Below the pieces are notes generated by a model, which saw only the letters and a program-made list of their open reading frames with translations, searched no databases and was not told the origin of the DNA. This document shows positions 23,922 through 46,563 of a stretch of DNA of 64,000 nucleotides, piece by piece (position 1 is the stretch's first letter; every line of letters starts with the position of its first letter). The translations under genes were made by a program, and so were the position numbers. Origin of the DNA: Imbricaverruca yamaguchii (taxonomy: Eukaryota > Arthropoda > Thecostraca > Neoverrucidae); NCBI GenBank assembly GCA_034440575.1, contig JAOTOL010001170.1:155001-219000 (forward strand). Reading direction: 5' to 3'.

Positions 23922-26403
23922 GTCAGTGGCGGGGGAAGGGTCAGTGGCGGGGGAAGGGTCAGTGGCGGGGGAAGGGTCAGTGGCGGAGGGCAGGTCAGTG
24001 GCGGGGGAAGGGTAGTGGGGGGAGGGTCGTGGCGGGGGCAGTGGCGGAGGGCTGGACAGTCGGGACGAGGCCGGCCCGAGCCGGCGGACAGGTCAGTGGC
24101 GGGGGCGGGGACAGGTCAGTGGCGGGGGAAGGGTCAGTGGCGGGGGAAGGGTCAGTGGCGGAGGGCAGGTCAGTGGCGGGGCAGGACAGTGGCGGAGGGC
24201 TGGACAGTCGGGACGAGGCCGGCCCAGAGCCGGCGGACAGGTCAGTGGCGGGGGACAGGTCAGTGGCGGAGGACAGGTCAGTGGCGGAGGGCAGGGTCAG
24301 TGGCGGGGGCAGGTCAGTGGCGGGAGGACGGGTCAGTGGCGGAGGACAGGTCAGTGGCGGAGGACAGGTCAGTGGCGGAGGGCAGGGTCGGTGGCGGAGG
24401 GCAGGTCAGTGGCGGAGGGTGGTGGAGGGCAGGTCAGTGGCGGAGGGCGGGTCAGTGGCGGAGGGAAGGGTCAGTGGCGGGGGACGGGTCAGTGGCGGGG
24501 GACGGGTCAGTGGCGGGGGCAGGGTCGGTGGCGGAGGGCAGGTCAGTGGCGGGGGAAGGGTCAGTGGCGGAGGACAGGTCAGTGGCGGAGGACAGGTCAG
24601 TGGCGGGGGAAGGGTCAGTGGCGGAGGGCAGGTCAGTGGCGGGGGAAGGGTCAGTGGCGGGGGAGGGTCAGTGGCGGGGGGGGGTCAGTGGCGGGGACGG
24701 GTCAGTGGCGGGGGAAGGGTCAGTGGCGGAGGACGGGTCAGTGGCGGGGGAGGGTCAGTGGCGGAGGCAGGTCAGTGGCGGAGGGCAGGTCAGTGGCGGA
24801 GGGCAGGGTCAGTGGCGGAGGGCAGGTCAGTGGCGGAGGGCAGGACAGTGGCGGAGGGCAGGTCAGTGGCGGAGGGCAGGTCAGTGGCGGAGGGCGGGTC
24901 AGTGGCGGAGGGCAGGGTCAGTGGCGGAGGGTGGGTCAGTGGCGGAGGGCAGGTCAGTGGCGGGGGAAGGGTCAGTGGCGGGGGAAGGGTCAGTGGCGGG
25001 GGAAGGGTCAGTGGCGGAGGGAAGGGTCAGTGGCGGGGGAAGGGTCAGTGGCGGAGGACAGGTCAGTGGCGGAGGGCAGGATAGTGGCGGAGGGCAGGAC
25101 AGTGGCGGAGGGCAGGTCAGTGGCGGGGGCGGGTCAGTGGCGGGGGAGGGTTGGAGGGCAGGTCAGTGGCGGGGACAGGTCAGTGGCGGAGGGCAGGGTC
25201 AGTGGCGGAGGGAGGTCAGTGGCGGAGGGCAGGTCAGTGGCGGAGGGCAGGGTCAGTGGCGGAGGGCAGGTCAGTGGCGGAGGGCGGGTCAGTGGCGGAG
25301 GACAGGTCAGTGGCGGAGGACAGGGTCAGTGGCGGAGGGCAGGGTCAGTGGCGGGGGAGGGTAGGGAGGACAGGTCAGTGGCGGAGGGCAGGTCAGTGGC
25401 GGAGGGTGGCGGAGGGCAGGACAGTGGCGGAGGACAGGTCAGTGGCGGAGGGCAGGACAGTGGCGGAGGGAGGTCAGTGGCGGAGGGCAGTGGCGGGGGG
25501 CAGGTAGTGGCGGGGGGGGTCAGTGGCGGGGAGGGTCAGTGGCGGAGGGCAGGTCAGTGGCGGAGGGCGGGTCAGTGGCGGAGGGCAGGTCAGTGGCGGA
25601 GGACAGGTCAGTGGCGGGGACAGGGTCAGTGGCGGAGGGCAGGACAGTGGCGGAGGACAGGTCAGTGGCGGAGGAAGGGTCAGTGGCGGGGGTGGGCAGG
25701 GTCAGTGGCGGAGGGCAGGTCAGTGGCGGAGGACAGGTCAGTGGCGGAGGAGAGGTCAGTGGCAGGTCAGTGGCGGAGGGACAGGTCAGTGGCGGGGGCG
25801 GGTCAGTGGCGGGGGACGGGTCAGTGGCGGAGGACAGGGTCAGGTGGCGGAGGGAGGGCAGGTCAGTGGCGGAGGGGGGGTCAGTGGCGGAGGGCAGGTC
25901 GGTGGCGGAGGGTAGTGGCGGAGGGCAGGTCAGTGGCGGAGGGCAGGTCAGTGGCGGAGGGCGGGTCAGTGGCGGAGGGCAGGTCAGTGGCGGAGGACAG
26001 GTCAGTGGCGGAGGGCAGGTCAGTGGCGGAGGGCAGGTCAGTGGCGGAGGGCAGGTCAGTGGCGGAGGACAGGTCAGTGGCGGAGGGCAGGGTCAGTGGC
26101 GGGGGCAGGTCAGTGGCGGAGGGCAGGTCAGTGGCGGAGGGCAGGTCAGTGGCGGAGGACAGGTCAGTGGCGGAGGGCGGGTCAGTGGCGGAGGGCAGGT
26201 CAGTGGCGGAGGGCAGGTCAGTGGCGGAGGGCAGGTCAGTGGCGGAGGACAGGTCAGTGGCGGAGGGCAGGTCAGTGGCGGAGGACAGGTCAGTGGCGGA
26301 GGACAGGTCAGTGGCGGAGGGCAGGTCAGTGGCGGAGGGCAGGTCAGTGGCGGAGGGCAGGTCAGTGGCGGAGGCAGGTCAGTGGCGGAGGGCAGGTCAG
26401 TGG
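23922..26403. repeat. Giant 18-19 bp minisatellite of donor-like units
   Basis: About 130 units of (A)GGTCAGTGGCGGAGGGC or the GGGGGAAG variant, starting exactly at the donor of exon 23754-23921. Every unit restates ACAG|GTCAGTGGCGG. Longer copies of the exon end (GGACGAGGCCGGCCC) recur at about 24070 and 24215. No + strand frame has regular stops, producing frames up to 685 codons (24391-26448) that are array artefacts. Confidence 0.95.
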
Positions 26404-28098
26404 GGTTACCGCAGAGGCGGCGCCACGACACGATACTGCTCATACTAAGTTGGCCCGGTCCACAGCCGCACCCACAGGCCCATCACGAATGGCCGTTCCG
26501 GAGCCGACGCCTAGACGCCCGATTAGTCACCGTCGTCACCGTCGTCTCCGTCATCTCCATCGCCTCGGTAGTGCCCCGTCCTGGCGCACACGAGCATGGC
26601 CATGGTGCCAGCTGGTTCCCCTCCAGACGAACATTGTGGGCTCTATTCACCCCCCCCCCCCCCCAGGGTCGAGGTCACCGTTTCTGAGTAGAGAGCGGGA
26701 GGGGGCGGCGTTGAAGTCGCAGGGCGGGCCAGCGGAATTTGCTGCGAGGTGATTTGTTGGCGGACTTTGGTGGAGAATGTCAACAAAGCTGGTATGGCTG
26801 AGCGAGCAAAACCGGTGTAAACAACGGAATGCCAGCACGTCGTCTCTCTGCACGGTGGCGTGACCTCATGTGTTGTAGGCACGTGCGAATCACTGGCGTG
26901 GTCAGATTACTCCAGTCTGAAGTACGACTACACCAGTCGGACATTACGCCTCACCAGTCACAGATACTGGAGTCCCGCGGCCTCCAGCCCGAAGTACTTT
27001 TTTTCAAAGTATTTCTATCAAACTACTAGGGGGGATCAAACTACTGAGTCGATTCTTGGCATGCGACGCCAGAATGTAGATGCCGCCTTCGATGGCGAGA
27101 GGGGGCTGTCTTCCGCCGTCTGAAGATGGAGCGTGCTTCCCCAGAATGGCTCCCCGTTGCCCCTCCCTCCCCCCCACCTCTGGTGACGCCTCCGGTCGGC
27201 GGCTTGGGCAGGTTGAGTCACCGTCTGAGTGTGAGGCCAGTTCGGAGGGGGGGGGGGGCAGAGATCAATGGCTAACAAGTGCAAGTTCAACGAGGTCAGT
27301 TCTGGCCGACTGACCAGAGGTTGGGCGGCGGCGGTGGGTGGGTGGGGTGGGGGAGGGGGGGGGGCGGGCCGACACCCGCCAAACACTGCCAGGGTGTTGT
27401 TTATTCAAGTGACTCACTCCTAGTGAATGCGGTTGCCGTCCCACCTCGTTGATAAGGTGTTGGAACAGCGTTTTGCGTCGGTCGCCCCTCCTTTGAAGCG
27501 CATTGATGTGTCGGACTAGCGAAACGGCAAAACGGAGGGTCGTCGGCTGTATTTCACTCATTTCCGTGTGCGGCGAGGAGGGATCTGTCCAGCCTGCTAC
27601 GGGATGGATTCGCCAGCTGAATTTGCAGGCAATACAGCTCTTTTTAAATGGAGAGATAAAGGTGACCAAATGTTTCAGAGTGCACATGGAATTGTTCGTT
27701 AACGGACAGTCGTGTATATTTGATGTTATCAGTGAACTACCGATAATTTTAACGACTTGGCATTAGTTGTAAGGCATTGGATGATGGGAATGTGCTTTAA
27801 TCAGGCGTGAGCAATACCAACGATTCCGCGAAGGCGCCCACTTTTTGCCGTTCAATGCGGCACCTTTTCCTCCGGTGTTTATCTCAGCCGGCCATACGTG
27901 AATCGTGGGAAGACAAGTCAACTGTGCAATCTGGCCATCTTCACACCTTCGCAATCAACCGGTCCCTGGAGCAAGAGGAAATACGCGCACCGGAGGAATG
28001 AGGTTCCACCGACGGCTCGCTCGGTGGCCGATTGCCGTATGTTTACATGGTGCAATGCCCCACCCCAGCCGCGACCCTCCCACCCATAATTTTTTTAT
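26404..28098. other. Interval without recognisable genes
   Basis: Holds a C-run (26648-26663) and a G-rich stretch (27245-27370) with many runs of three or more G, able to form quadruplexes. No exon with a recognisable product. Confidence 0.4.
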
Positions 28099-28415
28099 GC
28101 CGCTTTGGTAGCTCAGTTGGTTAGAGCGCTGGCCTGCGCTGGTCTCCCCTGTCCTGGCAACACAGGGTTCGAGTCGCTTCGCACGCTCGCATTTAGCCCC
28201 CAGCCGGGAGTGTCAGTCGGCAGCTGGCCCGATAAGGCGGGGACGAGCTACCGGGTGGCGTGTCGGTGCATTGGCGGCACGTTAAACTTTCGGTCTAAAT
28301 TCTGCCGTTGAACTGGAGTTCATGGATCGGGTGGTGGGGCCAGGGTTCACGCAACAAACTCTGCTTAGCAATAGAACCCTGGTTCCTCAAGCCACCCGAA
28401 CAACTCGGATTAAAT
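28099..28415 (+). mobile_element. SINE-D
   Basis: The head GCCGCTTTGGTAGCTCAG is followed by the same body and terminal stem-loop as the copy at 16321, ending AACTCGGATTAAAT. Confidence 0.85.
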
Positions 28416-29371
28416 TTATTTTTAAAAAAATTTTAATGTAGGGCTATCTGTTTCCCACTGAATGTGGCACGTACATGGCCAAAGAGAGTGAAAGGTTGTC
28501 CAACACCTCCCATCTGCGCACAGCTGTTCAGTGTCCATCACCTCGCGTGGTGGAATGTCTCATCACGGCGTCAATGTCCGGTATTCCAGCTGATGGTATT
28601 CCCGCGGGCGACAGGGGAAGTGGTGGACGGATGTGACGGATGTATTGATTGGTAAGAGGGGTCTTCCCGAGCAAGGCAATCCAGCGGGAGATTGAGTGGC
28701 TTAGCGGACGTTTTGGAGTTTCAGCGCACATAATAAAATAAGCGGCACGTGCACCAGAAAATGATATTGGGAATACGTAGAAAATGTATTGGGTGTTTAC
28801 CGGCATTGAAACTGCGTACTTAGTTTTTGACAAATCGACCACATTGGCTTAATTTTACTGTGCTAGCACAGCTGCCGGTGCATCTAAAGCCTAAATGATC
28901 AGCGAACAAAATCGCGTTCACTGGCACCGTTCAAGATTGGTCTTCTGCGTATCATGGGGACCACTTACTCTATCCAGCACACGTGACACACCATTTATGA
29001 ATGAAGGAGCATTTATGTCACATACGTGTGCCGCGCTCATGGCGATTGATGCCAATTTAGATATTTGGCGCCCCAATCTAATTAATCGTAGCATGTCTGT
29101 ACGCGCCTTACAGGAGGATCTGTTATGTAGACATTCTTAATTACTATCGTTAGTGTGACTTAATCTTTGAGAGAATGGTATGCACTTCGCATGTCTCGGT
29201 ATTCTGTCTCCCTCGAGATCACGACACATGGTTATTCACTTTCTCAGCAGCGTTGCATCGAGGCAACCCATCCTTCCTCTGAACAGAGTACACCACACGA
29301 AGTCTGGGTTACTGCACCCCTGCATGCGCTGACGGAATTCGGCCCAACATCATGCGTCAACCCAAAACTAC
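28416..29371. other. Interval without recognisable features
   Basis: A very weak LINE-tail resemblance near 28872-28898 (GGTGCATCTAAAGCC) is the only repeat trace. Confidence 0.4.
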
Positions 29372-29480
29372 ATAGTTCGAGTCTCACCTGTCGCTACTCT
29401 TCGCCTGTTACCAATCGGCGCGAGAGATTGGCGACGCTACATGACTCAACGGCCGATATGTCTTAAAAAAACAAATAATA
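29372..29480 (+). mobile_element. 5'-truncated SINE-A
   Basis: Begins at GTTCGAGTCTCACCTG (inside the B box) and ends GATATGTCTTAAAAAAACAA. Confidence 0.8.
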
Positions 29481-29486
29481 AAGCCA

Positions 29487-29565
29487 GCCACCGGTGGGAT
29501 TCGAACACGCGGCCCTTGGCCCGGCAACCAGACGCTGCGTCGACCGCGCTACAGAGGCGCGCGAA
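29487..29565 (-). tRNA. tRNA-like sequence, minus (probable relic)
   Basis: The minus strand has TAGCGCGGTCGACGCAGCG (A-box-like) and GTGTTCGAATCCCAC (B box) at normal spacing. The acceptor arms pair poorly, so it is more likely a pseudogene or SINE head than a working tRNA. It lies head to head with the tRNA-Arg 126 bp away. Confidence 0.4.
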
Positions 29566-29690
29566 TGCGCCCTTAATCCAGTTGAAGCCCACCCCGTAAG
29601 AGTCTTGCGTGGCGCGGTACGTGGGCTGTTCCTACGGTCGGGGTGGGGTGTAAATCACACCCGACACCGGCTCGGCGCCGAGGACCGCGC

Positions 29691-29763
29691 GTCCCTGTAG
29701 CGCAGTGGATAGCGCGTTGGACTTCTAATCCAAAGGTCGCGGGTTCGAATCCCGCCAGGGATG
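29691..29763 (+). tRNA. tRNA-Arg (UCU)
   Basis: A 73 nt cloverleaf with every stem intact. The acceptor stem GTCCCTG/CAGGGAT has seven pairs with G-U at the end. The D stem is GCGC/GCGC. The anticodon stem TTGGA/TCCAA encloses loop CTTCTAA (anticodon TCT). The T stem is GCGGG/CCCGC with loop TTCGAAT. A TTTT Pol III terminator follows at 29765-29768. A and B boxes are canonical. There is no intron and no SINE body, so this looks like a real gene reading AGA codons. Confidence 0.93.
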
Positions 29764-30660
29764 GTTTTGTGCGGGGTAATCTGAACGCATCTGAGGTGCC
29801 TCGGTGATGAATGTGCTGGGACTACCGGAGGCGGTACAAAAGGTCGCGCCGCACTTCGGAGAGGTCTCCGTGTGGTTTCAGATGGTTTCCGCTCGTCGTG
29901 TGCCCCTGCACGCGCGGTGTTGCGCAGCATGGCTGGATACGTCGGGAATACTCGCCCCTTCTGAAATCTCTATCAACGCTATATAACTTATCACAGCTGC
30001 TGCAACCCTAAACCCAAAGATCTTAACAGTCATAAAACAGTTGCGGTTCAGATATGTTTCCTAATGGCGCCGGCAATTATTCCATTAAATGCGAAATGAT
30101 CCCATAAAGTATTCATACGTGATGAAGTATTGGTGAAGTATTCATTCATTCATCAATTGAAGTAATCGGAATATATTTCCATGTATATATAATATATATA
30201 TATATAATATTAGTGGATGTGTGCACCCTCGTGCATCGTAAGCTCATAAATGGTCCTCACGTTTCAGGAGCACATCATATGTACGTTCAGCACATTTTGG
30301 TGGAAAAAGCTGGATTGAACCGTTAGCACGGAAGTATGCGCGCGCTGTCGGGATGACGTCACTGCACCACTGATAACATCCTCCACCGCAGGTTCGGTCT
30401 GGGCATCAACCTGCGCGGCAGCGACATCTGGCTAGAACCTCTGCACGACCAAAAGTCAAATCGGGAGAGGTCGTCCAAACGACACCGAGACACTTGCGGC
30501 CCGACCCGCCGCCGGGCATCTCCCCGGGCAGGTGCGGGGTCACGCGAGCCTTTCGTGACCTTTTGGACCGGCCCGGCCTAGGCTTGAGGCGGCTGGATCA
30601 ATGAACTTGTCGACATCAAAGTTGCAGGAGCCTCATTAGCATCGGTCCTGCATTATTTAC
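29764..30660. other. Interval without recognisable genes
   Basis: (TA)n lies at 30183-30212. Near 30390-30600 is GC-rich sequence with no supported exon. Confidence 0.4.
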
Positions 30661-30995: not shown

Positions 30996-31030
30996 GTGTG
31001 CACTTATGAATACTGAAGAGACGCCTTTTC

Positions 31031-31517: not shown

Positions 31518-31591
31518 GGTCGGTTAGCTCGGTTGGTCAGAGCGTCGTGCCAATAACGCGAATGTCGTGGGTTCGAACCCCACACTGGCCA
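31518..31591 (+). tRNA. tRNA-Ile (AAU)-like gene with C33
   Basis: 74 nt with all four arms pairing: acceptor GGTCGGT/ACTGGCC, D stem GCTC/GAGC, anticodon stem TCGTG/CGCGA, T stem GTGGG/CCCAC. A TTTTT terminator follows at 31598-31602. The anticodon loop CCAATAA gives AAU but has C where U33 is nearly universal. It may be a young pseudogene, a SINE founder or an unusual active gene. Confidence 0.7.
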
Positions 31592-32425: not shown

Positions 32426-32429
32426 GAGC

Positions 32430-33237: not shown

Positions 33238-34430
33238 CTGTCTTTATCTGACCTGACTGATCTGACATGACTGACCTGACATGACTGACCTGACATGACT
33301 GACCTGACATGACTGACCTGACATGACTGACCTGACATGACTGACCTGACATGACTGACCTGACATGACTGACCTGACATGACTGACCTGACATGACTGA
33401 CCTGACATGACTGACCTGACATGACTGACCTGACATGACTGACCTGACATGACTGACCTGACATGACTGACCTGACATGACTGACCTGACATGACTGACC
33501 TGACATGACTGACCTGACATGACTGACCTGACATGACTGACCTGACATGACTGACCTGACATGACTGACCTGACATGACTGACCTGACATGACTGACCTG
33601 ACATGACTGACCTGACATGACTGACCTGACATGACTGACCTGACATGACTGACCTGACATGACTGACCTGACATGACTGACCTGACATGACTGACCTGAC
33701 ATGACTGACCTGACATGACTGACCTGACATGACTGACCTGACATGACTGACCTGACATGACTGACATGACATGACTGACATGACATGACTGACCTGACAT
33801 GACTGACATGACATGACTGACATGACATGACATGACTGACATGACATGACTGACTTGACATGACTGACCTGACATGACTGACCTGACATGACTGACCTGA
33901 CATGACTGACTTGACATGACTGACTTGACATGACTGACTTGACATGACTGACATGACATGACTGACATGACTGACATGACTGACATGACTGACCTGACAT
34001 GACTGACCTGACATGACTGACCTGACATGACTGACCTGACATGACTGACATGACATGACTGACATGACTGACATGACTGACCTGACATGACTGACCTGAC
34101 ATGACTGACCTGACATGACTGACCTGACATGACTGACATGACATGACTGACATGACTGACATGACATGACTGACCTGACATGACTGACATGACATGACTG
34201 ACCTGACCTGACATGACTGACCTGACATGACTGACCTGACATCTGACCTGACTGTCATGACTGACCTGACATGACTGACCTGACATGACTGACCTGGCAT
34301 GACTGACCTGACATGCTGACCTGACATGACTGACCTGACACTGACATGACTGACCTGACATGACTGACCTGACATGACTGACCTGACATGACTGACATGA
34401 CATGACTGACATGACATGAGTCTTCTGATC
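33238..34430. repeat. 14 bp minisatellite CATGACTGACCTGA, ~80 copies, upstream of PDZ exon
   Basis: Near-perfect units for 1.2 kb, ending 20 bp before the acceptor of exon 34452. Each unit holds CTGAC, which fits the metazoan branch-site consensus. Minus-strand Ser/His/Val-Met frames up to 455 codons across it are artefacts. Confidence 0.95.
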
Positions 34431-34451: not shown

Positions 34452-34651
34452 CTGCCTGCTGGGACGTGGCGGTGACCCGGGGCTCCCGCGGCCTGGGCCT
34501 CAGCATAGAGAGCGCCCGCGGCGACTGGACGGGTCACGTGTGTGTCAAGCGGGTGTTTCCCCACCAGCCGGCGGCGAGCACGGGACAAATCCGCGCCGGC
34601 GATGTCCTGCTGCGGGTCAACGAGCTGCCCATGCGCGGCCTGTCTGTACAG
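34452..34651 (+). CDS. PTPN13: PTPN13-like gene, exon A: first two-thirds of a PDZ domain
   Basis: The exon runs from acceptor ATGCCGGCAG|CT (phase 1) to donor GTACAG|GTGAGA (phase 0), 200 nt. The product starts [19 protein letters not shown] and carries the PDZ carboxylate-binding loop (R-x3-GLGL). It continues with [20 protein letters not shown] and [12 protein letters not shown], covering strands b1 to b5. By memory of the human protein, PDZ3 of PTPN13 has the same VFPxQPAAxxGxI, GDVxLxVN and GLSxQ signature. PTPN13 is a large submembranous tyrosine phosphatase with FERM and five PDZ domains that binds receptor tails and cytoskeletal partners. FRMPD2 is the main alternative because it shares related PDZ domains. 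The intron after Q falls just before helix aB. Flanking introns are a branch-site-like array on the left and a CTGTCT microsatellite on the right. Confidence 0.82.
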
Positions 34652-34669
34652 GTGAGACTTACCGTCCGT

Positions 34670-35065
34670 CTCTGTCTATGTCTATGTCTGTCTCTGCCTC
34701 TGTCTGTCTCTGGCTATGTCTGTCTCCATCTCTGTCTCTGTCAGTCTGTCTCTGTCAGTCTGTATCTGTCAGTCTGTCTCTGTCAGTCTGTCTCTGTCTG
34801 TCTGTCTCTGTCTGTGTCTGTTATGTCTGTCTCTGTCTGTTATGTATGTCTGTGTGTGCATGTCTGTATATGTCTGTGTCTGTGTCTGTGTCTGTATGTA
34901 TGTATGTGTCTGTGTATGTCTGTGCGTATGTATGTGTCAGTCTGTGTCTGTATGCTTGTCTTTGTCTGTCTGTCTGCTGTTGTCTCAGTTTGTCTGTCTC
35001 TGTTGTCTGTCTGTCATGTCTGTCAGTCTGTCTCTGTCATGTCTGTCTCTGTCTGTATGTCTGTC

Positions 35066-35098
<33 letters not shown>

Positions 35099-35110
35099 GT
35101 CTGTGTCTTC
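34670..35110. repeat. (CTGTCT)n/(TGTG)n microsatellite filling the intron start
   Basis: Begins within about 20 bp of the donor of exon 34651 and runs 440 bp as CTGTCTCTGTCTGT with TATG interruptions. No coding value. Confidence 0.93.
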
Positions 35111-35165
35111 TGTCTGTTGCTTTTGTTGCTTTGTTGATGTGTGTCTTTACGTTTTTACTTCATTG

Positions 35166-35692
35166 TCCCGTCGTATGAGGTGCTGTATGTGCCGTGAGGT
35201 GCTGCCTCTGATGGTGCCGTGTCCGGCTGTCAGGAGGTGCTGTATGTGCCGTGAGGTGCTGCCTCTGATGGTGCCGTGTCCCGGCGGCAGGAGGTGCTGT
35301 ATGTGCCGTGAGGTGCTGCCTCTGATGGTGCCGTGTCCCGGCGGCAGGAGGTGCTGTATGTGCCGTGAGGTGCTGCCTCTGATGGTGCCGTGTCCCGGCG
35401 ACAGGAGGTGCTGTATGTGCCGTGAGGTGCTGCCTCTGATGGTGCCGTGTCCCGGCGGCAGGAGGTGCTGTATGTGCCGTGAGGTGCTGCCTCTATGGAT
35501 GGTGCCGTGTCCCGGCGGCAGGAGGTGCTGTATGTGCCGTGAGGTGCTGCCTCTGATGGTGCCGTGTCCCGGCGGCAGGAGGTGCTGTATGTGCCGTGAG
35601 GTGCTGCCTCTGATGGTGCCGTGTCCCGGCGGCAGGAGGTGCTGTATGTACCGTGAGGTGCTGCCTCTGATGGTGCCGTGTCCCGGCGGCAG
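35166..35692. repeat. 57 bp minisatellite duplicating the acceptor of exon B
   Basis: About nine units, each ending CCCGGCGGCAG|GAGGTGCTG, the same string that forms the true 3' splice site at 35693. In the exon B frame each upstream copy reads GAG GTG CTG TAT GTG CCG TGA, so using any earlier acceptor would introduce a stop after six codons. Confidence 0.93.
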
Positions 35693-35872
35693 GAGGTGCT
35701 GCACGCGCTGCGTCTGGCCGGCTCGGAGGTGCTGCTGTCGCTGGTGCGTCCGGTCGGCCCGGCCAGTGGCGACCTCTCCGACTCGGAGGACGAGCCGCCG
35801 CCGGCCGCCGCCGCCGAGGTGGCCCGCTCCTCGTCACGAGAGACACTCAGCCTCGACCTGGACTCTGCCGGC
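35693..35872 (+). CDS. PTPN13: PTPN13-like gene, exon B: end of the PDZ domain plus acidic/Ser linker
   Basis: 60 codons in phase 0 at both ends, acceptor GGCGGCAG|GAG, donor GCCGGC|GTGAGT. Residues 1-20 ([20 protein letters not shown]) complete the PDZ domain begun in exon A with helix aB and strand b6, matching the QEV-x2-ALR-x4-EVxLxLxRP pattern I recall for PTPN13 PDZ3. The helix aB1 position is Val, not the His typical of class I PDZ domains. The remaining 40 residues are a low-complexity linker ([23 protein letters not shown]) with acidic-serine clusters that could be casein kinase sites (inference). The human linker between PDZ3 and PDZ4 is much longer. It joins exon A in phase 0 and exon C in phase 0. 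Confidence 0.82.
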
Positions 35873-36412
35873 GTGAGTGTCCAGGGAGTGTCTAGGGCCA
35901 GGGAGTGTCTAGGGAGTGTCTAGGGAGTGTCTAGGGAGTGTCTAGGGAGTGTCTAGGGAGTGTCAGGGAGTGTCTAGGGAGTGTCTAGGGAGTGTCTAGG
36001 GAGTGTCTAGGAGTGTCTAGGGAGTGTCCAGGGAGTGTCTAGGAGTGTCTAGGGAGTGTCTAGTGAGTGTCTAGGGAGTGTCTATGGAGTGTCTATTGAG
36101 TGTCTAGGGAGTGTCTAGGGAGTGTCCAGGGAGTGTCTAGGGAGTGTCTAGGGAGTGTCTAGGGAGTGTCTAGGGAGTGTCTAGGAGTGTCTAGGGAGTG
36201 TCTAGGGAGTGTCTAGGGAGTGTCTAGGGAGTCGCGAGAGTCACGGGAGTCGCGAGAGTCACGGGAGTCGCGAGAGTCACGGGAGTCGCGAGAGTCACGG
36301 GAGTCGCGGGAGTCACGGGAGTCTAGGGAGTCACGGGAGTCACGGGAGTCACGGGAGTATAGGGAGTCACAGGAGTCTAGAGAGTATAGGGAGTCTAGAG
36401 AGTCGAGTCGAG
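35873..36412. repeat. 11-12 bp minisatellite derived from the exon B donor
   Basis: Starts at the donor (GTGAGTGTCCAGG) and becomes AGGGAGTGTCTAG units to about 36228. It then becomes GAGTCACGGGAGTCGC units to about 36412. The first unit is the splice donor itself. Confidence 0.9.
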
Positions 36413-36891: not shown

Positions 36892-37090
36892 CCTTGCGCG
36901 TTCACGGGGCGTTGGCGACTCAGTAGTTAAGCTGAGCGTCTGGCAAGCCAGAGGTACGGGGTTCGGTTCCCCGCGATGTCCGCCTTTCCTGCCAGGGTGA
37001 GAGGCAAGTGGCGCCAGAGCAGCTGAGCTGAGGCGACAGCTGCTGAGTGCGTCGTAAAGCCACAATCCAATCCAATCCTTGCGAGTACAC
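36892..37090 (+). mobile_element. SINE-C with imperfect TSD
   Basis: The body at about 36905-37077 ends (AATCC)n. CTTGCGCGTTCAC before it and CTTGCGAGTACAC after it resemble a duplication with two changes. A short insertion (AGCAGCTGAGCTGAGGCG) lies in the 3' part. Confidence 0.87.
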
Positions 37091-38310: not shown

Positions 38311-38660
38311 GTCTGCGCGTGAGGAGCTGTCGCGCTCGGCCGCCGAGTCGTGAACGTCTGGCGCCAAACGCTGGAACGTTTGGCGCGCCGCCCAATCAAC
38401 GACTCCGAGCTGCTGCCAGATCCTAGCCGATGACTGAGTTTGCTGCCAGATCAAGACGGCGGCCTGGTTTTCCGGGCGTGCCGCGTGCCGATCTCAACTT
38501 GTGGAAATTGGGTTGGGGGGGGGGGGGGAGATTGTATTGCACTACTCGCAGGGCTGTCGTCTTGTAAAGACGACTGGCTGGATGCATCAGCCTCATTTCA
38601 GACACTTTGGGCTGCGTCAGGACGTCGGCCGGTCGTGCTCGCGCTACTCTGTGTCTGGGC
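38311..38660. other. Intronic interval without recognisable features
   Basis: G-run at 38516-38528. Nothing else. Confidence 0.4.
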
Positions 38661-38830
38661 CGGGGATGGCCGAGTGGCTAAGGTGTCGAGCTCTGGGTAC
38701 CGAAGGTCCCGGGTTCGACACTCGCACCACTCGGGACACTTCCCAATCCCGCGGCCCACCGGCGAGGCAGTGTGGGCGGCGCCATCAGCCGTGGATGTGC
38801 ATAGTGCGTCGCGAACCACCCAATAAACAA
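38661..38830 (+). mobile_element. SINE-B
   Basis: GGGGATGGCCGAGTGGCTAA head, B box CGGGTTCGACAC, ends CACCCAATAAACAAAA. Confidence 0.9.
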
Positions 38831-39186: not shown

Positions 39187-39240
39187 GGGCGCAGTGACCC
39201 TTGATGTCGACGCGCCCCTAAACTCCAATCCACCACCACC
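39187..39240 (+). mobile_element. Tail-only LINE insertion
   Basis: GGGCGC (39187-39192) pairs with GCGCCC (39212-39217), followed by CTAAACTCCAATCCACCACC. Confidence 0.82.
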
Positions 39241-40357
39241 TCCCGGGCATGTGGCCTGTTGAGCGTGTCATCGCTCTGGCGTCGAGCGTCCTTGGATGGC
39301 GGCTGAAATCTGCCGCTTCGGGATGACGATGCGCCGTTGGACAATGTTCCACTTGGTCGGCTGCCGGTGCGACAGGTCGAGTCGCAGCGGAACGCGAGGT
39401 GGGGCTGCAGCCGCTGTGGAAATCGCTGCACTGTGTGATCGCTGATCACTGCGTACGTGTTGGACGTCGTTCCATCGCAGTTGGCATTGCGGCGTCCAGA
39501 GACTATGGCTGCAGATCCCGGGGGGAGGGGGTCTGGTCGCCCTGGTTTAGCACCCTGCGAATGGTAATTTGTGATTTTCCCGATGCGATTGAAGGTATGT
39601 TCTGAAATAAAAGACGTGGACTCTCTTGGTTTGGTGTGATAACTCCAGCCTTGCGAGAAAGCTTGAACATTAATTAAAATATTAGCAGGTATTTATATCC
39701 AAATGTGTGTATGTATGTATGCAAGTATACGTATGCATGTATGTATGTGGATGTATTGTTAGTTACAGTGTCACATTCCTACATTGTCACGGACCATTCC
39801 AGATGTCATGTCAACCAGCGGAGAACCATGTATTGGAAGGTCAAGGTACAAAACATCAAGAACACTCGACATTCAACACACTCGCACCGTACCTCTTGCT
39901 TAAAGCCATATTCACTCAAGTCACACATCTTTAGGAAACGACCGCGGGATATCTTTCACCAAACCTCGAATGCTCCCTCCATGTTGGCTCCCCCAAATAA
40001 TTTTCAGTTTTAGCGTGGGGTCCTGTTGAGTGTTCCCCCACCCCCACCCCGAATCCATTTGCGGCCTGCCCATTTCCTCTATGGGTACGCGACCCTTTCC
40101 TCGCGAGTCTGTACCCGACATCTCTTGGCGATGTTCCAAACATTAGTATGTTCATTGGCCGCTTCGGTCAGTTGGCGCTACTGCTCGGATACTTCACTGC
40201 GCTTGAGGTTCAGTCAGAGAACACCGCGTGTATTGTGAAGCTGGCTGGGGGATGGGTCCTTTCTGAAGACCGGATACCAATTGATAGGCTGCTAATTGTT
40301 GAGAAGGGAGTTGTTCTATCTACCCTACGCTGTCATTTCGTCACTGTGGATTATGAA
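39241..40357. other. Intronic interval
   Basis: A degenerate ATGTATGTATGC microsatellite lies at 39703-39752. No exon recognised. Confidence 0.4.
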
Positions 40358-40663
40358 TGACTACATGTCACCCATCAAAATATGTAAGTATGAGTAAATG
40401 GTGTTTGCCACCAAAACACCATTTACTCACTTACCCTATTTGTATGGGATGGGGATAGCATGTAGTCATTGTTAAAATACGTGTTGTTTTCCTGGTGTTT
40501 GAAAACGGTTTGTTTCACGATATTAATATTATTTTCCTGGAGAAATTACTTTTTTCTAGATTTCAGCACATAAAAAACACCATTTACTCACACTTAACAT
40601 ATTGTTATGGGGTGCAGTCAACCCCATAGAAATATGGTAAGTGTGGTAAATGTTTTTTATGTG
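40358..40663. mobile_element. Pair of foldback elements sharing AAAACACCATTTACTCA
   Basis: Element 1 (40358-40473) has arms ATGACTACATG...GAGTAAATGGTGTTT and AAACACCATTTACTC...CATGTAGTCAT around a 6 bp loop. Element 2 (about 40571-40663) has AAAACACCATTTACTCACAC and a near-inverse GTGTGGTAAATGTTTTTT. They look like small MITE-type hairpin elements of one family. Confidence 0.7.
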
Positions 40664-40827
40664 TTTTTATGGCTGTGGATTATCGCCTGCGGCAACAAAT
40701 CTCTAGTATCCACATCTTTGTGCACGGAAGAGCTTAATATTTTCACCACGTCTCACGTATTCCAGACAGATTGAGCAGAGCAAACGGCACGCCGGACGCT
40801 TGCTCACCTTCGTCTACAGCATGACCC

Positions 40828-41011
40828 CACAAAGCCGGGGACGAGTAGCCTGAGGGTAAGATGCTCGTCTCGCAATCGAAAGGCTGTGGGTTCGAGTCTC
40901 GCATGCCGCTACTCTTCGCCCGCGGCCAATCGGCGTGAGAGATTGGCGGCGCTGCATGACTAACGGTCGACGTGTCGTAAAACCCAATAGCCAACCAACC
41001 GCACAAAGCCG
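40828..41011 (+). mobile_element. SINE-A inserted at the acceptor region of PDZ exon C
   Basis: The body at 40838-41001 has the duplication CACAAAGCCG at 40828-40837 and 41002-41011. Only 14 bp separate the duplication from exon C, so the SINE supplies the sequence where the branch site is expected. A one-base deletion unique to this copy turns GACTCAACGG into GACTAACGG, making CTAAC (branch A at 40963, 62 nt before the AG). Confidence 0.93.
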
Positions 41012-41025
41012 CCTCTCTGTGTCAG

Positions 41026-41178
41026 ACGTTCGAGGTGGAGATGGAGAAGGTGAACAACACGCTGGGCCTGAGTCTGCGCCGCACGGACGCTACGGTGCTG
41101 GGCCACGTGATCCGCGCCAAGGTCCGCCAGCCGGCGCTGAGCGACCCGCGCGTCCGCGTCGGCGACAAGCTGATCCAG
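41026..41178 (+). CDS. PTPN13: PTPN13-like gene, exon C: first part of the second PDZ domain
   Basis: 51 codons, phase 0 to 0, acceptor CTGTGTCAG|ACG, donor ATCCAG|GTCGGT. The product begins TFEVEMEKVNNTLGLSLRRT. It has the PDZ binding loop as NNTLGLSL, then PALSD and RVGDKLIQ. It splices in frame with exon D to give GDKLIQ-VNGVD, the b4-b5 region. By memory this matches PTPN13 PDZ4, which has PAKSDGRL, GDRLIKVN and THTDAV at equivalent places. The acceptor tract is short (CCTCTCTGTGTCAG) because a SINE sits just upstream. Codons are strongly GC3. The distance from exon B is 5.2 kb. Confidence 0.85.
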
Positions 41179-42010
41179 GTCGGTGTCGGGCGAGACGCTG
41201 GTCCGGGTCAGGTCGGTGTAGGGGAGACACTGGTCCGGGTCAGTGTCGGGGAAGACGTTCCCCAGGTCGGTGTCGGGGAGACTGGTCCAGGTCGGTGTCA
41301 GGGGAGACGCTGGTCCGGGTCAGTGTTGGGGAAGACGTTCCCCAGGTCGGTGTCGGGGAGACTGGTCCAGGTCGGTGTCGGGGGAGACGCTGGTCCGGGT
41401 GTGTGGGGAGGCAGGTCGGTGTGGGAACTGGTCCGGGTCGGTGTGGGGAGACGCTTCCGGGTCGGTGTCGGGAGACTGGTCCAGGTCGGTGCAGGGGAGA
41501 CTAGCTGACCCAGGCCAGTGTCAGGGGAGAGAGACTGATCCAGGTCAGAGTCAGGGGAGAGACGGGCTGATCAAGGTTGGTATCTGGGGAGATGCTGATC
41601 CAGGTCAGTGCAGGGAGAGGCTCGCAGGGAGATTCTTGTTAGTGTGGGATAATGCAGGTCTGTGTCTGTGGCGAGACTGGCTGATCCAGGTCAGCGTGAG
41701 GGGAGAGATGGGCTGATCCAGGTCAGTGTCTGAGAGACGAGCTGATCCAGATCAGGGCAGCAGGAGAGATGGGCTGATCCAGGTCAGTGTCTGAGAGACG
41801 AGCTGATCCAGGTCAGAGCAGCAGGAGAGACCAGCTGATGCAGGTCAGTGTCTGAGTAGGAACAGATCCAGGTCAGTGACAGAGGTCTCCAGACAGGGGA
41901 GACATTGATGCAAAACAGTTCCCGGCAGACGCAACGGTTTCAGATCGTTGTTAGTGGTGTACAAACTGATCCCGGTCATTGCTGAGGGGGACAAGCAGAT
42001 CGAGGTCAGC
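41179..42010. repeat. Degenerate ~35-45 bp minisatellite copying the exon C donor
   Basis: Units repeat CTGATCCAG|GTCAGTGT or GGTCCAG|GTCGGTGTCGG, i.e. the last exon codons plus donor, with GGGGAGAC spacers. About 18 copies become more diverged with distance from the exon. Confidence 0.9.
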
Positions 42011-42720
42011 GTCAGGGGTGTGAGTGGTCCAGGTTAGTGGCAGAGAAGACAATGCATCGAACTGCATTCCACACGGCGCGCTTAAGCTTTGTTAGTCACC
42101 CTAGGTGCCGGGCGCACCGCGCGCAATGTCGATGTGACGTCAGCTCCGAGAAGTGTTGCGTGTTGATGCCGTCGTTCCTCGTCTCGCTGAGCGCTGGTCG
42201 TGCGATGGCTAGCTTCAGGCCAGCCGCCGGCGTGTGGCACTATTATTAATGGTATTGTTGAATTATTTCGTGATGTCGTTTGCTATTATTGGTCGAGTTC
42301 CTGCTGCCATGACATGCGATTCCGTTATTTACTAGCGCCACTTGCTATTATTCGTTGAGTTCCTGCCGTAATATCGTATGACTGGTTGGTTTCCTGCCGT
42401 CATGTGATGTGATTGGTTGATGTCCTGGCGCGTTTCCGTGTTCCCGATGCATTGTCCGGCATGACTTTCTGTCCCGTAAATTGTAACGACGAGCACATTA
42501 CCTGACCCGTGCGCCTCTGACGTGGTCAGGGGCGCAGCCAGGATTTTCACAAAGGGAGCCCGATCAAAAAAAATGTCATGAACCGGAGACCGCTGCGAGA
42601 ATCTCAGAATTTCTCGGTCGGTCTGGTGTATTTTTCGTTGTTATTGGGTAGGGGCGGTACGGACTCACCTGGCCGCGCCTCTGCGCGCGGTACACACTCT
42701 GACACGGCCGCCCACTGCGA
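42011..42720. other. Intronic interval without recognisable features
   Basis: Diverged TTCCTGCCGTCATGTGATG-type words recur near 42295-42420. No gene. Confidence 0.4.
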
Positions 42721-42723
42721 CAG

Positions 42724-42879
42724 GTGAACGGCGTGGACACGACGTGCATGTCCCACGCCGACGTGGTGGCCTTCCTGCGCCAGTGCTCGGCCAGGGTCAC
42801 GCTGACCCTGTACCGCGACGGCCAGGCCACGCCCGGGAGCCCCGGCTCGCCGGTCAGCTCGCGCTCCACCAGGCTGAGG
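42724..42879 (+). CDS. PTPN13: PTPN13-like gene, exon D: end of the second PDZ domain
   Basis: 156 nt from acceptor CACTGCGACAG|GTG to donor GCTGAG|GTCAGT, starting in phase 0. VNGVDTTCMSHADVVAFLRQ followed by ARVTLTLYRDG completes strand b5, helix aB and b6. His at the first position of helix aB (SHADVV) is the class I ligand determinant, conserved in PTPN13 PDZ4 (THTDAV). The last 14 codons depend on a run of five C near 42840, where the tandem copies downstream have four. One extra base changes the linker frame, so the 3' end is uncertain (sequencing error or a real change). Phase at the end is 0 as read, which does not match the phase 2 start of the exon at 46564. Confidence 0.83.
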
Positions 42880-43140
42880 TCAGTCGTGACGTCATAGTGA
42901 CGTGATGGGGACGGTCGCGGCAGCCCCGGCTCGCCGGTCAGCTCCCGCTCCACCAGGCTGAGGTCAGTCGTGACGTCATAGTGACGTGATGGGGACGGTC
43001 CCGGCTTCGCCGGCTCCCGCTCCACCAGGCTGAGGTCAGTCGTGACGTCATAGTGACGTGATGGGGACGGTCACGGCAGCCCCGGCTCGCCGGTCAGCTC
43101 CCGCTCCACCAGGCTGAGGTCAGTCGTGACGTCATAGTGA
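42880..43140. repeat. ~84 bp tandem duplications of the exon D 3' end plus donor
   Basis: Three further copies of GGCTCGCCGGTCAGCTCCCG plus TCCACCAGGCTGAG|GTCAGTCGTGACGTCATAGTGACG, each with a donor. TGACGTCA occurs once per unit. Confidence 0.93.
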
Positions 43141-43680
43141 CGTTACGGTGACTGTGACGGTGACTGTGCGGTGACGTGTGAGCTCTCGCCGTGTGTTCAA
43201 ATTCGCTATTTCAGGTACTGAACCAAGGAAGTAAATGCAATTTAAACTCGAGATAGCTTGCGCATCATGAGGAAGACGCTCATCAAAATCGGGATTTGAG
43301 TGTATTTCGAGGCAGAAGAGCAACTGAATGCGGTTCCTTGTCTGTTGCCTATCACAAGTTATCCTTTTTTACTTTGGTACCTGGCTTAGTACTGTAAACT
43401 GTATAGTATAGTACCTGAGTACTGGTAAAGGTGGGGTACTTTACTTGTCTTTTTACTTTTATTTTACTTTTTACTAGACAACTTTTTTATTTACATCCTG
43501 ACACCGAACTGAACGAATTTGAACACATCGAGCTCCCCTATCACCTGCCTCTCACATATTTACTACCGCCTGCCCTTTTCACCTGCCTCTTGTTATCTAC
43601 CTACTCACATGCATCTATCATCCTGTCATCTACCTCTCTGTCACCTGCGTCTATATCATCTACCTACTTCCACCTAGTCT
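43141..43680. other. Intronic interval grading into a TCACCTACCTCTCTA satellite
   Basis: From about 43530 to 44155, diverged CACCTACCTCTCTAT words form the background into which a SINE-C and two LINE tails inserted. Confidence 0.6.
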
Positions 43681-43872
43681 CCTGTCACCCACCTGGGGCG
43701 TCGGTAGTTCAGTGGCTAAGCTGAGCGTCTGGCAGTTCAGAGGTACGGGGTTCGATTCCCTGCGGCGCATGTCCTTCCTGCCATGGTAAGAGGCAGGCGA
43801 CGCCATATGGCATCGACTGCCGAGTGCGTCGCAAAGCCACAATCCAATCCAATCCAATCCTGTCACCTACCT
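43681..43872 (+). mobile_element. SINE-C with 14 bp TSD
   Basis: The body at 43695-43858 is flanked by CCTGTCACCCACCT (43681-43694) and CCTGTCACCTACCT (43859-43872). The tail hairpin is perfect: CGACGC (43798-43803)/GCGTCG (43826-43831). Confidence 0.93.
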
Positions 43873-43894
43873 CTATCACCTACCTCTCCATTTA

Positions 43895-43965
43895 GATATG
43901 GGCGCAAAGTGACCCTTGATGTCGACGCGCCCCTAAACTCTAATCCACCACCACCACCTACCTCT
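43895..43965 (+). mobile_element. Tail-only LINE insertion
   Basis: GGGCGC (43900-43905)/GCGCCC (43927-43932), tail CTAAACTCTAATCCACCACC. Confidence 0.82.
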
Positions 43966-44032
43966 CTATCACCAACCTCTCTATTACCCCTACCTCTCTA
44001 TCACCTGCCTCTGTATCACCTACCTCTCTATT

Positions 44033-44090
44033 TAGTTATGGGCGCAAAATGACCCTGGAAGTCGACGCGCCCCTAAGCTCCAATTCATCA
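44033..44090 (+). mobile_element. Tail-only LINE insertion
   Basis: GGGCGC (44040-44045)/GCGCCC (44067-44072), tail CTAAGCTCCAATTCATC. Confidence 0.82.
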
Positions 44091-44463
44091 CCTACCTATC
44101 CCCTCTATCACAATTCACCACCACCTCTATCACCTACCTATCCCCCGACACCTCCCTCTTCACCACACTGATGCTAGTTGTGACGACGCGATGGCCGGGC
44201 GGCGCGACGGTGAGCTCTCCTCTCAAACACCACTTCACCGACGTCGTGAAATAGTGACGTCATAGTGACGTGGTGGTGGGCAGTGCCACGTCAGCCAGCC
44301 TTCTCGATGTGTCCCGGCGGTCGCGATTTCGTGCCAGGATCAACGCAGGTGGAGCTCAGGACGGCTGGATTGAACTATAGCGTGAGTGGCCGGCCGGCGA
44401 TGAGCGAGCGTTTGCGTGTCAGAGGCGCGAGCACCAGCCGCGGCGACCCGTGCCGTGCGCCGT

Positions 44464-44545
44464 GGTGACGTCACTCCCATCAGTTACGTCACTCCCATCA
44501 GCGACGTCACTCCCATCAGCGACGTCACTCCCATCAGTGACGTCG
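44464..44545. repeat. 18 bp minisatellite GACGTCACTCCCATCAGY
   Basis: About 4.5 copies. Each has GACGTCAC and a pyrimidine-CATCAG acceptor-like end. Confidence 0.88.
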
Positions 44546-44993
44546 CTGCCGTTGCGTGTGCGGGCGGGTCTGGGGTTTGGGTGGGCGTGGTCAGGTCGGC
44601 CAGAGTGGGCTAGCTGGTGGGATAGTCGACCCCACTCCGCCGAATGTGGCTTCACCAGATTGAGTGAAATCCCCAGGTGGAAGAGTTCGGTTCGCTTTTT
44701 TTTGTTCTGTTAGCGAAGAAGGGAAATTGTCTTCTGAGATGTCTGGCGATCCATGCTTTCCTCTCAGAAACGTCTGTATGCTGGAAAATTTGCTACAGTC
44801 CTTTCCTCCCACTCCCCATTTCCTTTCCATTCCTTCCCATCCCCTTCTCTCCCACTCCCCTCACATTCCCCTCCCTTCCCATCTTCCCCCTTCCCACCTC
44901 CACCACCATGCCGACAGTCCCGGGTCCCGGTTCACTCGGGGTGGTCTGGACCCGGCGCACTCCTCCGGGACTCTTGAGCGCCAGGCGACCAGG
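44546..44993. other. Interval without recognisable genes
   Basis: A CCCATTCCC-type pyrimidine/C-rich tract lies at 44805-44910. Nothing else. Confidence 0.4.
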
Positions 44994-45432
44994 CCTGGCC
45001 CAATCCACCACCGCCAGGCGACCAGGCCTGGCCCAATCCACCACCGCCAGGTGACCAGGCCTGGCCCAATCCACCACCGCCAGGTGACCAGGCCTGGCCC
45101 AATCCACCACCGCCAGGCGACCAGGCCTGGCCCAATCCACCACCACCAGGTGACCAGGCCTGGCCCAATCCACCACCACCAGGTGACCAGGCCTGCCCAA
45201 TCCACCACCACCAGGTACAGGCCTGGCCCAATCCACACCGGCGCCGCAGGTGACCAGGCCTGGCCCAATCCACCACCGCCAGGCGACCAGGCCTGGCCCA
45301 ATCCACCACCACCAGGTGACCAGGCCTGGCCCAATCCACCACCACCAGGTGACCAGGCCTGTCCCAATCCACCACCACCAGGTGACCAGGCCTGGCCCAA
45401 TCCACCACCGCCAGGTGACCAGGCCTGGCTGA
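44994..45432. repeat. 32 bp minisatellite (GACCAGGCCTGGCCCAATCC)
   Basis: About 13 units with CCACCGCCAG|GTGACC or GCGACC variants. The AGGCCT core makes each unit partly palindromic. Long frames on both strands are artefacts. Confidence 0.93.
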
Positions 45433-45699
45433 CACGCCCCACCCCCAACTGCCATCGCCCTCTGGCGCCACATCACACACCCGGGTCACTCTGCGTCACG
45501 TGACACGCCGGCCTGGCGTCGGTCTTGTCACGTGACCATTGGCGTTGCCGCGGATTTCCGATGTGGCCGAGAAGGTTTCGGTTCAACCCGCCCCCTCCGT
45601 CTCCCGCCGTAGGGGCAATGCCAAGCTTTGTGAAGTTTGGAGAGGGGCACGCTTCTCCCTCTCTGTGCTGCCGACGCTCATGCACGTGGCAAACACGAG
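45433..45699. other. Short unassigned interval
   Basis: Nothing recognised. Confidence 0.35.
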
Positions 45700-46563
45700 T
45701 AACGTAATTGCCGCATCTCCCGACAGGCCAGAGTAACGTAATTACCGCATCTCCCGACAGGCCGGAGTAATGTAATTACCGCATCTCCCGACAGGCCAGA
45801 GTAATGTAATTACCGCATCTCCCGACAGGCCAGAGTAACGTAATTACCGCATCTCCCGACAGGCCGGAGTAATGTAATTACTGCGTCTCCCGACAGACCC
45901 GAATGACGTCATTACTGCGTCTCCCGACAGACCCGTGTGACACTCACTCCTTCGTTATGCGACAGGCCCGAGTAATGGAGTACTGGGGTCCCGGAAGGCC
46001 GAGTGGTTAATTACGTGTCGGGCTATGGGACAGGTCCCGGGTTCGACACTAGCGCCAATGTAGGACATCTCCCAAGAATGCTCATTACTGCGGCCCACGG
46101 CGAATGACAGTGTGGGCGTCTACATTAGCCGTGAATGTCACTAACGTGTCGTTCACCCGATAAACAAACAAGTAACGGCAGTACTGGATCACCCGACAGG
46201 CCCGACCGGTGTCATTGTCGCAGCACCCAACAGGCCCGAATGACTGTCCTGCGTCGCCCGACAGGCCCGATCGACGTCGTAGCTGAATCACCCGACAGGC
46301 CCGAGGTCGTGCTCTCAGGTCGTGCTGTCGTGCGACGTCATGACCGCGTCACCCTGCAGGCCCGAGTGACAGCGTTGTTGTGTGGCAGGACCTGGCCGAG
46401 TGACACCGTGACCGCGTGACCCCGCAGGCCCGAGTGACAGCGTTGTTGTGTGGCAGGACCTGGCCGAGTGACACCGTGACCGCGTGACCCCGCAGGCCCG
46501 AGTGACAGCGTTGTTGTGTGGCAGGACCTGGCCGAGTGACACCGTGACCGCGTGACCCCGCAG
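45700..46563. repeat. Acceptor-like arrays upstream of exon 46564
   Basis: A ~34 bp unit (AATTACCGCATCTCCCGACAG|GCC) covers 45700-45960. Diverged CACCCGACAG|GCCCGA units cover 46188-46316. A 68 bp unit (GTGACCCCGCAG|GCCCGAGTGAC) covers 46317-46563, and its last copy is the true acceptor. In the exon frame every decoy copy reads into TGA or TAA within two or three codons. Confidence 0.92.
45971..46187 (+). mobile_element. SINE-B within the array, with TSD
   Basis: The body at about 45987-46170 is flanked by AGTAATGGAGTACTGG and AGTAACGGCAGTACTGG. More diverged than the other SINE-B copies, so probably old. Confidence 0.85.

What the first reader, a model, noticed from the sequence alone, without database searches (positions are those of the whole stretch)
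23922..46563. Minisatellites seeded at splice junctions of the same gene
At every well-supported PDZ-region exon border an array starts or stops at the junction, and its unit restates that junction. Examples: acceptor GGCAG|GAGGTGCTG (35166-35692), acceptor CCGCAG|GCCCGAG (46317-46563), donor ACAG|GTCAGTGG (23922-26403), donor GTGAGTGTC (35873-36228), donor CCAG|GTCGGTG (41179-42010), exon end plus donor (42880-43140), and branch-like CTGAC (33238-34430). Units differ from junction to junction, so this is repeated independent origin and not one satellite spreading. I know of no established mechanism. Replication slippage or repair primed at R-loop or splice-associated breaks would be one idea.
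Basis: partly seen in the sequence, partly recalled or inferred. Interest (0 to 1): 0.9.

Follow-up and report, generated by a model that had tools for sequence, protein, structure and literature searches.

The report
Tandem repeats copying splice junctions
In one gene, probably from an arthropod, the stretch of DNA that marks where exon meets intron has been copied over and over into the intron at several exon edges, so the cell must pick one real splice site next to many look-alikes; similar structures were described before in amphioxus.

Summary
The gene is a multi-PDZ protein whose best relatives are arthropod "PTPN13-like" proteins. Of 14 splice junctions in seven phase-consistent exons, five lie inside a tandem array whose unit copies the junction (E1, E5, E6 donors; E4, E7 acceptors). 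The E4 donor array starts 2 nt into the intron. Three junctions have an array 13-32 nt away that does not restate them; five have none within 100 nt. So "every well-supported border" is wrong.

Junction-spanning minisatellites are known in amphioxus as "mirages". New here are the probable lineage (arthropod) and five cases in one gene.

Junction overlap is enriched against placement and seeding nulls (P 0.00005-0.002), but less so with exon GC matched (P 0.003 or 0.10), because arrays favour GC-rich DNA. My reading: tandem duplication is frequent here (33% of the window is array); a duplication across an exon edge leaves the exon and one splice site intact, survives, and grows on the intron side. 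A junction-specific initiator is possible but not required. By a generic weight table, 65, 18 and 3 decoy donors and 8 and 14 decoy acceptors score at least as well as the true sites.

The parts
23754..23921 (+). E1: exon, begins TGACGTCGCCATGG; may be the first coding exon (good Kozak context, recalled), so its 'acceptor' is uncertain
   Evidence: open frame; phase fits E2; coding score is not independent, since E1 was in the training set; no homology hit
23921..26403 (+). Mirage-type array on the E1 donor, CAG|GTCAGTGGCGG units, about 140 x 18 nt; 58 copies of the 20-nt junction word within 3 kb, 65 decoy donors scoring at least as well as the true site
30392..30531 (+). E2: tentative exon linking E1 and E3 in phase (its donor was chosen among candidates that fit the phase); no array at either border
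33248..34419 (+). CTGACATGACTGAC array ending 32 nt before the E3 acceptor; does not restate the junction
34452..34651 (+). E3: first half of PDZ 1
   Evidence: Pfam PDZ, tblastn with relatives
34668..35117 (+). TCTG-rich array starting 16 nt after the E3 donor; does not restate the junction
35176..35701 (+). Mirage-type array on the E4 acceptor, 57-nt unit ...CGGCGGCAG|GAGGTGCTG..., 8 decoy acceptors (5 identical to the true site for 42 nt upstream and 9 nt downstream)
35693..35872 (+). E4: second half of PDZ 1 plus linker
   Evidence: alignment of the spliced protein to relatives; coding score not independent
35875..36404 (+). Array starting 2 nt inside the E4 donor (GAGTGTCTAGG, then GGGAGTCAC units); restates GAGTGTC, does not span the junction
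41026..41178 (+). E5: first half of PDZ 2 (ends ...GDKLIQ|)
   Evidence: tblastn 62% identity to the Lygus protein
41158..41878 (+). Mirage-type array on the E5 donor, CTGATCCAG|GTCAGTGTC-like units (three TRF blocks, last units near 42029), 18 decoy donors
42724..42878 (+). E6: second half of PDZ 2 (starts |VNGVD)
42833..43181 (+). Mirage-type array on the E6 donor, unit holding about 46-51 nt of exon plus the donor, 3 decoy donors
45697..46570 (+). Mirage-type array on the E7 acceptor: 34-nt CGACAG|GCCCGA units, interrupted at about 45980-46175 by what reads as a tRNA-derived SINE (by eye), then a 68-nt higher-order unit next to the exon; 14 decoy acceptors
46564..46772 (+). E7: linker exon after PDZ 2 (|PEAVEMLSGLA), donor side without array
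   Evidence: alignment of LRPEAVEMLSGLA to LRKEAQDMLSELA across the E6/E7 junction; tblastn hit by 14 of 122 proteins, best E 0.001

Best explanation
These are mirage-type minisatellites. In an array-prone, GC-rich genome, short tandem duplications arise often. When one happens to span an exon-intron border, one copy still gives the whole exon plus a working splice site at the exon edge, and the other copies become intron. The change is nearly neutral to the protein, survives, and then expands on the intron side by slippage or unequal exchange. Shown: the arrays span five junctions, the junction supported by the gene model is the exon-side terminal copy in all five, overlaps with exons lie at exon edges only, and units are mostly unrelated. 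Inferred: the duplication and expansion steps, the neutrality, that at least two of the introns predate their arrays, and that splicing picks the terminal copy by exon definition.
For: Five of 14 junctions lie within arrays with junction-copying units. None of 75 TRF blocks lies wholly inside an exon; overlaps with exons are 1-46 nt, at the edge. Arrays cover 33% of the window. Array edges rise from about 2.3-2.6 per kb at 40-59% GC to 6.5 per kb at 70-79% GC, and exons are 72% GC. Alignment to relatives supports the exon-proximal copy as the real junction for E4, E5, E6 and E7. Introns E5/E6 and E6/E7 look old: the ENA protein P0004, whose letters resemble the Daphnia carinata relative P0054 (compared by eye), contains what read as two unspliced short introns at the same positions and phases, without arrays. 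The same structure is described in amphioxus, where the authors say their data suggest no interference with regular splicing (PMC3087553, passages).
Against: Uniform seeding predicts only 0.56 of 12 junctions spanned, against 5 (P 0.0003), and even the GC-matched null leaves a 2- to 4-fold excess, so junctions may be favoured beyond composition. The absence of blocks inside exons is weak evidence: at the window's mean density about 1.4 blocks would be expected in 1205 nt of exon (75 per 64,000, my arithmetic). The window protein lacks a few linker residues just before the E6/E7 junction that most of the eight aligned relatives have. No transcript data, so use of the terminal copy is not shown.
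Confidence: 0.6

Rival explanations
1. Junction-targeted birth: splice junctions are hotspots where duplication is primed, for example by co-transcriptional R-loops or breaks near splice sites.
For: 5 of 12 junctions spanned against 0.56 expected from uniform seeding, P 0.0003; 8 of 14 junctions within 16 nt of an array against 2.0 or 3.6 expected with GC matched, P 0.00014 or 0.009; donors and acceptors both hit.
Against: The GC-matched overlap test gives P 0.003 or 0.10 depending on the trim; 69 of 75 blocks do not touch a recognised junction; one gene only; no mechanism tested.
Confidence: 0.22
2. The arrays are kept by selection because repeated splice signals help definition or regulation of these exons.
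For: Six junction blocks are longer than the other 69 (rank-sum P 0.003); a donor-like unit lies on the transcribed strand in 3 of 6 junction blocks and on the other strand in 0 of 6. A C. elegans minisatellite is enriched in introns near multiple alternative splicing decisions (PMC4039745, passages).
Against: Decoys would mostly damage the product: all 8 E4 decoys keep frame but carry an in-frame TGA, and 64 of 65 E1 decoys follow a stop. The E5 and E6 acceptors and the E7 donor do without arrays. Long arrays also lie away from known exons, e.g. 4894-6811.
Confidence: 0.07
3. The introns themselves were born by tandem duplication of AGGT-containing exon sequence, and the arrays are the remains.
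For: Units carry exon sequence plus AG/GT; models of this kind exist (PMC4974935, abstract; PMC3087553, passages).
Against: The E5/E6 and E6/E7 introns appear to be at the same positions and phases in P0004, a Daphnia-like protein, as short array-free introns (by eye), so those introns would predate the arrays; the E6 acceptor, at the far end of the intron that starts at the E5 donor array, has no junction copies.
Confidence: 0.04
4. Assembly artefact: the arrays or their copy numbers are produced by misassembly.
For: Array copy number is hard to assemble; the authors of PMC3087553 call the draft-genome version of one globin mirage aberrantly assembled (passages).
Against: Units within arrays differ by substitutions and small indels, one array carries what reads as a SINE insertion and a second-level 68-nt unit, and the six junction arrays have different units.
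Confidence: 0.05
5. Chance: with 33% of the window in arrays, some junctions fall at array edges.
For: Of 600 random positions with arrays included, 99 had at least two copies of the surrounding 20-mer downstream and 112 upstream; the GC-matched expectation with wide trimming is 2.65 of 14, P 0.10.
Against: The other nulls give P of about 0.003 or less for overlap; of 400 random non-array positions only 1 downstream and 6 upstream have two copies; the copied stretches cross the junction with up to 51 nt of exon.
Confidence: 0.05

Closest known systems
[quoted passage not shown] Adh3, globins, TnC, PGBD5)
   Same: Tandem units span the junction, both 5' and 3' boundaries occur, unit lengths differ between genes and many units hold AG/GT signals (PMC3087553 passages; PMC3902484 passage).
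   Different: Here the host is probably an arthropod, five junctions of one gene are affected, and one array reaches 2.5 kb and about 140 units; no RT-PCR or polymorphism data.
Human interferon-induced 6-16 (IFI6) minisatellite giving multiple splice donor sites
   Same: A minisatellite that carries donor sites (title of Turri et al. 1995, seen in the reference lists of PMC4526556 and PMC2572611; that it sits in the 6-16/IFI6 gene is recalled and fits the citing papers).
   Different: By its title its repeats provide functional donors; here use of internal copies is unknown and would mostly give stops.
[quoted passage not shown] potato RdRp case)
   Same: A tandem duplication crosses an intron-exon boundary (PMC4974935 abstract).
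   Different: There a new intron arose; here two of the introns appear older than their arrays.

Membership tests
Mirage minisatellites (as described in amphioxus) | tandem unit spans an exon-intron boundary and copies exon plus intron sequence | tested here: met
   five of 14 junctions; not met at the E4 donor array
Mirage minisatellites (as described in amphioxus) | both 5' and 3' boundaries can be affected | tested here: met
   three donors, two acceptors
Mirage minisatellites (as described in amphioxus) | units differ between loci | tested here: met
   13 of 15 unit pairs at shuffle level; two borderline
Mirage minisatellites (as described in amphioxus) | regular splicing despite decoy sites (RT-PCR) | not testable with these tools
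   no RNA data; alignment to relatives is only indirect support
Mirage minisatellites (as described in amphioxus) | length instability, somatic polymorphism (Adh3) | not testable with these tools
   one haplotype only
Mirage minisatellites (as described in amphioxus) | cephalochordate host (the only hosts in the papers seen; a host range, not a structural feature) | tested here: inconclusive
   points to an arthropod: of 120 rows listed (of 341), those with an organism name are arthropods; but no amphioxus protein was compared and candidates were limited by length and shared words
Intron gain by tandem duplication | the intron is absent from relatives | tested here: inconclusive
   P0004 reads as holding introns at two of the positions; the other introns were not checked

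The most novel reading that the evidence does not exclude
Splice junctions are true hotspots of minisatellite birth in some animal lineages (cephalochordates and probably at least one arthropod): transcription or splicing primes tandem duplication there, and the spliceosome tolerates tens of near-perfect decoys by choosing the exon-terminal copy.
Probability: 0.25. Interest if true: 0.78.

Novelty: new member of a known kind. Interest (0 to 1): 0.5.

Why it matters
If the arthropod reading holds, it carries a structure described in amphioxus outside the chordates, and it packs five cases into one gene. It is also a natural test of splice-site choice: at the E4 acceptor five of eight upstream decoys are identical to the true site for 42 nt upstream and 9 nt downstream, so only exon content or position can tell them apart. 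A genome-wide count would say whether junctions are hotspots or merely places where duplications are tolerated.

Tried and rejected
Species: not identified. Barnacle was a guess from GC; three barnacle papers (passages only) gave, in the passages seen, no GC figure and no minisatellite statement. A first protein search with one PDZ half-exon gave 50 candidates, none at E 0.001 or better. Pfam over three forward frames (6001-20999 and 20001-63999; 1-6000 and the reverse strand not scanned) found only the PDZ exons and weak low-complexity hits (Serglycin, Collagen, Collagen_mid). PDZ 3 of the relatives was not found in the window: the best tblastn hits outside known exons had E 0.010 or weaker. 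Coding-score scan: trained on E1 and E3-E7 themselves, so it is no independent proof; it recovered five of the seven exons (E1, E4-E7) and missed E3 and E2; beyond them only 2177-2338 (+) and 51284-51430 (-) stood out, both unproven. Does the E4 unit descend from a longer exon stretch? Weak similarity only, 14 of 1000 shuffles as good. One older E7 unit shares just 9 nt with the junction (9 of 1000 shuffles as good); the E7 case rests on the regular 34/68-nt register. Donor-like motifs in other arrays show no strand bias: 3 plus, 4 minus of 23 in the gene span (two of the three plus are pieces of the E5 array), 4 and 4 of 42 elsewhere; 71 of 75 blocks were scored, units under 9 nt left out. 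E2 was left out of the placement null because its donor is tentative, and included. Array-edge density by GC has sparse extreme bins that break the trend (20-29% GC: 3 edges in 246 positions). Literature searches on such arrays (only 67 and 68 named crustaceans or arthropods) found the amphioxus papers and, by title, the human donor-site case; the library misses most subscription papers, and the 2002 amphioxus paper was not held (one search asked for it under a wrong identifier).
Full report
What the gene is. The window is eukaryotic and GC-rich (46-73% in 2-kb windows). Seven exons on the + strand join in phase: E1 23754-23921, E2 30392-30531, E3 34452-34651, E4 35693-35872, E5 41026-41178, E6 42724-42878, E7 46564-46772. 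The joined protein has two PDZ domains. A search with it gave four hits: Lygus 42% and Apolygus 44% identity over about 63% of the query (insects), a rodent multi-PDZ protein at 25%, and an unnamed ENA protein, P0004. An alignment search found 341 proteins at E 1e-10 or better among 7998 scored candidates; 120 rows are listed, and those with an organism name are arthropods, including Daphnia, Scylla, Hyalella, Armadillidium and Darwinula, many called "PTPN13-like". By tblastn at E up to 1, E3, E5 and E6 are hit by 113, 121 and 122 of 122 proteins and E7 by 14; E4 gets one hit, spurious and on the wrong strand, but it aligns well within the spliced protein; E1 has none. E1 and E2 therefore rest on open frame and phase only. 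The closest relatives share about 44%, so the species stays unknown; an arthropod is the best reading, not a proof.

What the arrays are. TRF gives 171 rows that merge into 75 blocks covering 20,946 of 64,000 bases. Of 14 junctions, five fall within a block (E1, E5, E6 donors; E4, E7 acceptors), the E4 donor block starts 2 nt in, three have a block at 13, 16 and 32 nt, and five have none within 100 nt. A 20-nt word across the junction (10 exon, 10 intron, 3 mismatches allowed) recurs in the adjoining 3 kb of intron 58, 7, 6, 3 and 2 times at the E1, E4, E5, E6 and E7 junctions and not at all at the other nine; of 400 random non-array positions only 1 downstream and 6 upstream reach two copies. 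Exon sequence in the copies reaches about 50 nt at E1, 13 at E4, 17 at E5, 51 at E6 and 7-13 at E7, with a few mismatches allowed. No block lies wholly inside an exon, though only about 1.4 would be expected there. The E7 array runs from 45697 to 46570 with 34-nt units CGACAG|GCCCGA, is broken by what reads as a tRNA-derived SINE, and has a 68-nt second-level unit next to the exon.

Is it more than chance? Three nulls. (a) Six exons placed at random among fixed arrays, with the exon core free of array: overlap 5 of 12 against 0.21-0.96, P 0.00005-0.0017. (b) Uniform seeding with each block's own period: 0.56 expected, P 0.0003; with the longest period 0.69, P 0.0007. (c) Positions matched for exon-side GC: overlap 5 of 14 against 1.15 (P 0.003) or 2.65 (P 0.10) by trim; within 16 nt, 8 of 14 against 2.0 (P 0.00014) or 3.6 (P 0.009). 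Null (c) matters: array edges are roughly 2.5 times denser in 70-79% GC than in 50-59% GC, and exons are 72% GC. So composition explains a good part of the effect, and one gene cannot settle the rest. The P values assume independent junctions and are rough.

How it most likely works. A tandem duplication that lies wholly in an exon changes the protein; one that spans a junction leaves the exon and a splice site intact, with the extra copy in the intron. Such duplications are filtered in, and the array grows away from the exon. This fits the terminal position of the modelled site in all five cases. At least two introns are probably older than the arrays: P0004, whose letters resemble the Daphnia carinata relative, reads through what look like two short introns at the E5/E6 and E6/E7 positions and phases; this is my reading of its letters, not an annotated gene. 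A junction-directed cause remains possible.

Consequence for splicing. At E4 five of eight decoys are identical to the true acceptor for 42 nt upstream and 9 nt downstream; all eight keep frame but the unit reads EVLYVP-stop. At E1 64 of 65 decoys lie after an in-frame stop, at E5 10 of 18, at E6 3 of 3. In an alignment with eight relatives the window protein shows no insert at the E3/E4, E5/E6 or E6/E7 junctions, and is a few residues shorter than most of them just before E6/E7, so the terminal copies are presumably used. No RNA evidence was available.

What is known. [quoted passage not shown] it mentions other loci, suggests no interference with regular splicing, and calls the mechanism unclear (PMC3087553, passages and reference entries). 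A second paper reports tandem repeats over splice sites in lancelet PGBD5 and cites troponin C (PMC3902484, passage). The title of Turri et al. 1995 shows a human minisatellite giving multiple splice donors (reference entries). A genome-wide tandem-repeat paper on Daphnia has no occurrence of "splice", "intron-exon" or "exon-intron" in its text (PMC3152781), and a C. elegans paper links an intronic minisatellite to alternative splicing without, in the passages seen, junction-spanning units (PMC4039745). I found no arthropod case of junction-spanning arrays in eight searches, only two of which named arthropods or crustaceans: weak evidence of absence.

Verdict. It is a new member of a known kind, in what is probably a new lineage, with five cases in one gene.

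Noticed in passing
window 2177-2338 and 2318-3123: Possible exon between two arrays; the 57-nt unit of the array at 2318 carries ...CACTGTACAG|GTGGGTGTC, a strong donor-like site, so this may be a sixth mirage. No homology support.
   Followed up: partly
window 4894-6811: About 1.9 kb of a 21-nt unit that is itself an inverted repeat (GTGTCCGA TCCG TCGGACAC, read by eye).
   Followed up: no
window 23638-23740: Array whose units hold TGACGTCA (CRE-like, recalled), ending 13 nt before E1, whose first bases are TGACGTCG; could be promoter rather than intron.
   Followed up: no
window 36903-37072, 38656-38830, 40838-40995, 43696-43860, 45980-46175, 46800-46980, 47020-47170: Several tRNA-derived SINE-like insertions of perhaps three types, read by eye (approximate ends); one splits the E7 array.
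   Followed up: no
window 29690-29764 and 31518-31591: Two tRNA genes (Arg TCT, Ile AAT) in the E1/E2 and E2/E3 introns.
   Followed up: no
window 46773-64000: The third PDZ domain that several arthropod relatives have was not found downstream on the + strand by tblastn or Pfam, so it may lie beyond the window, be too diverged, or be lost.
   Followed up: partly
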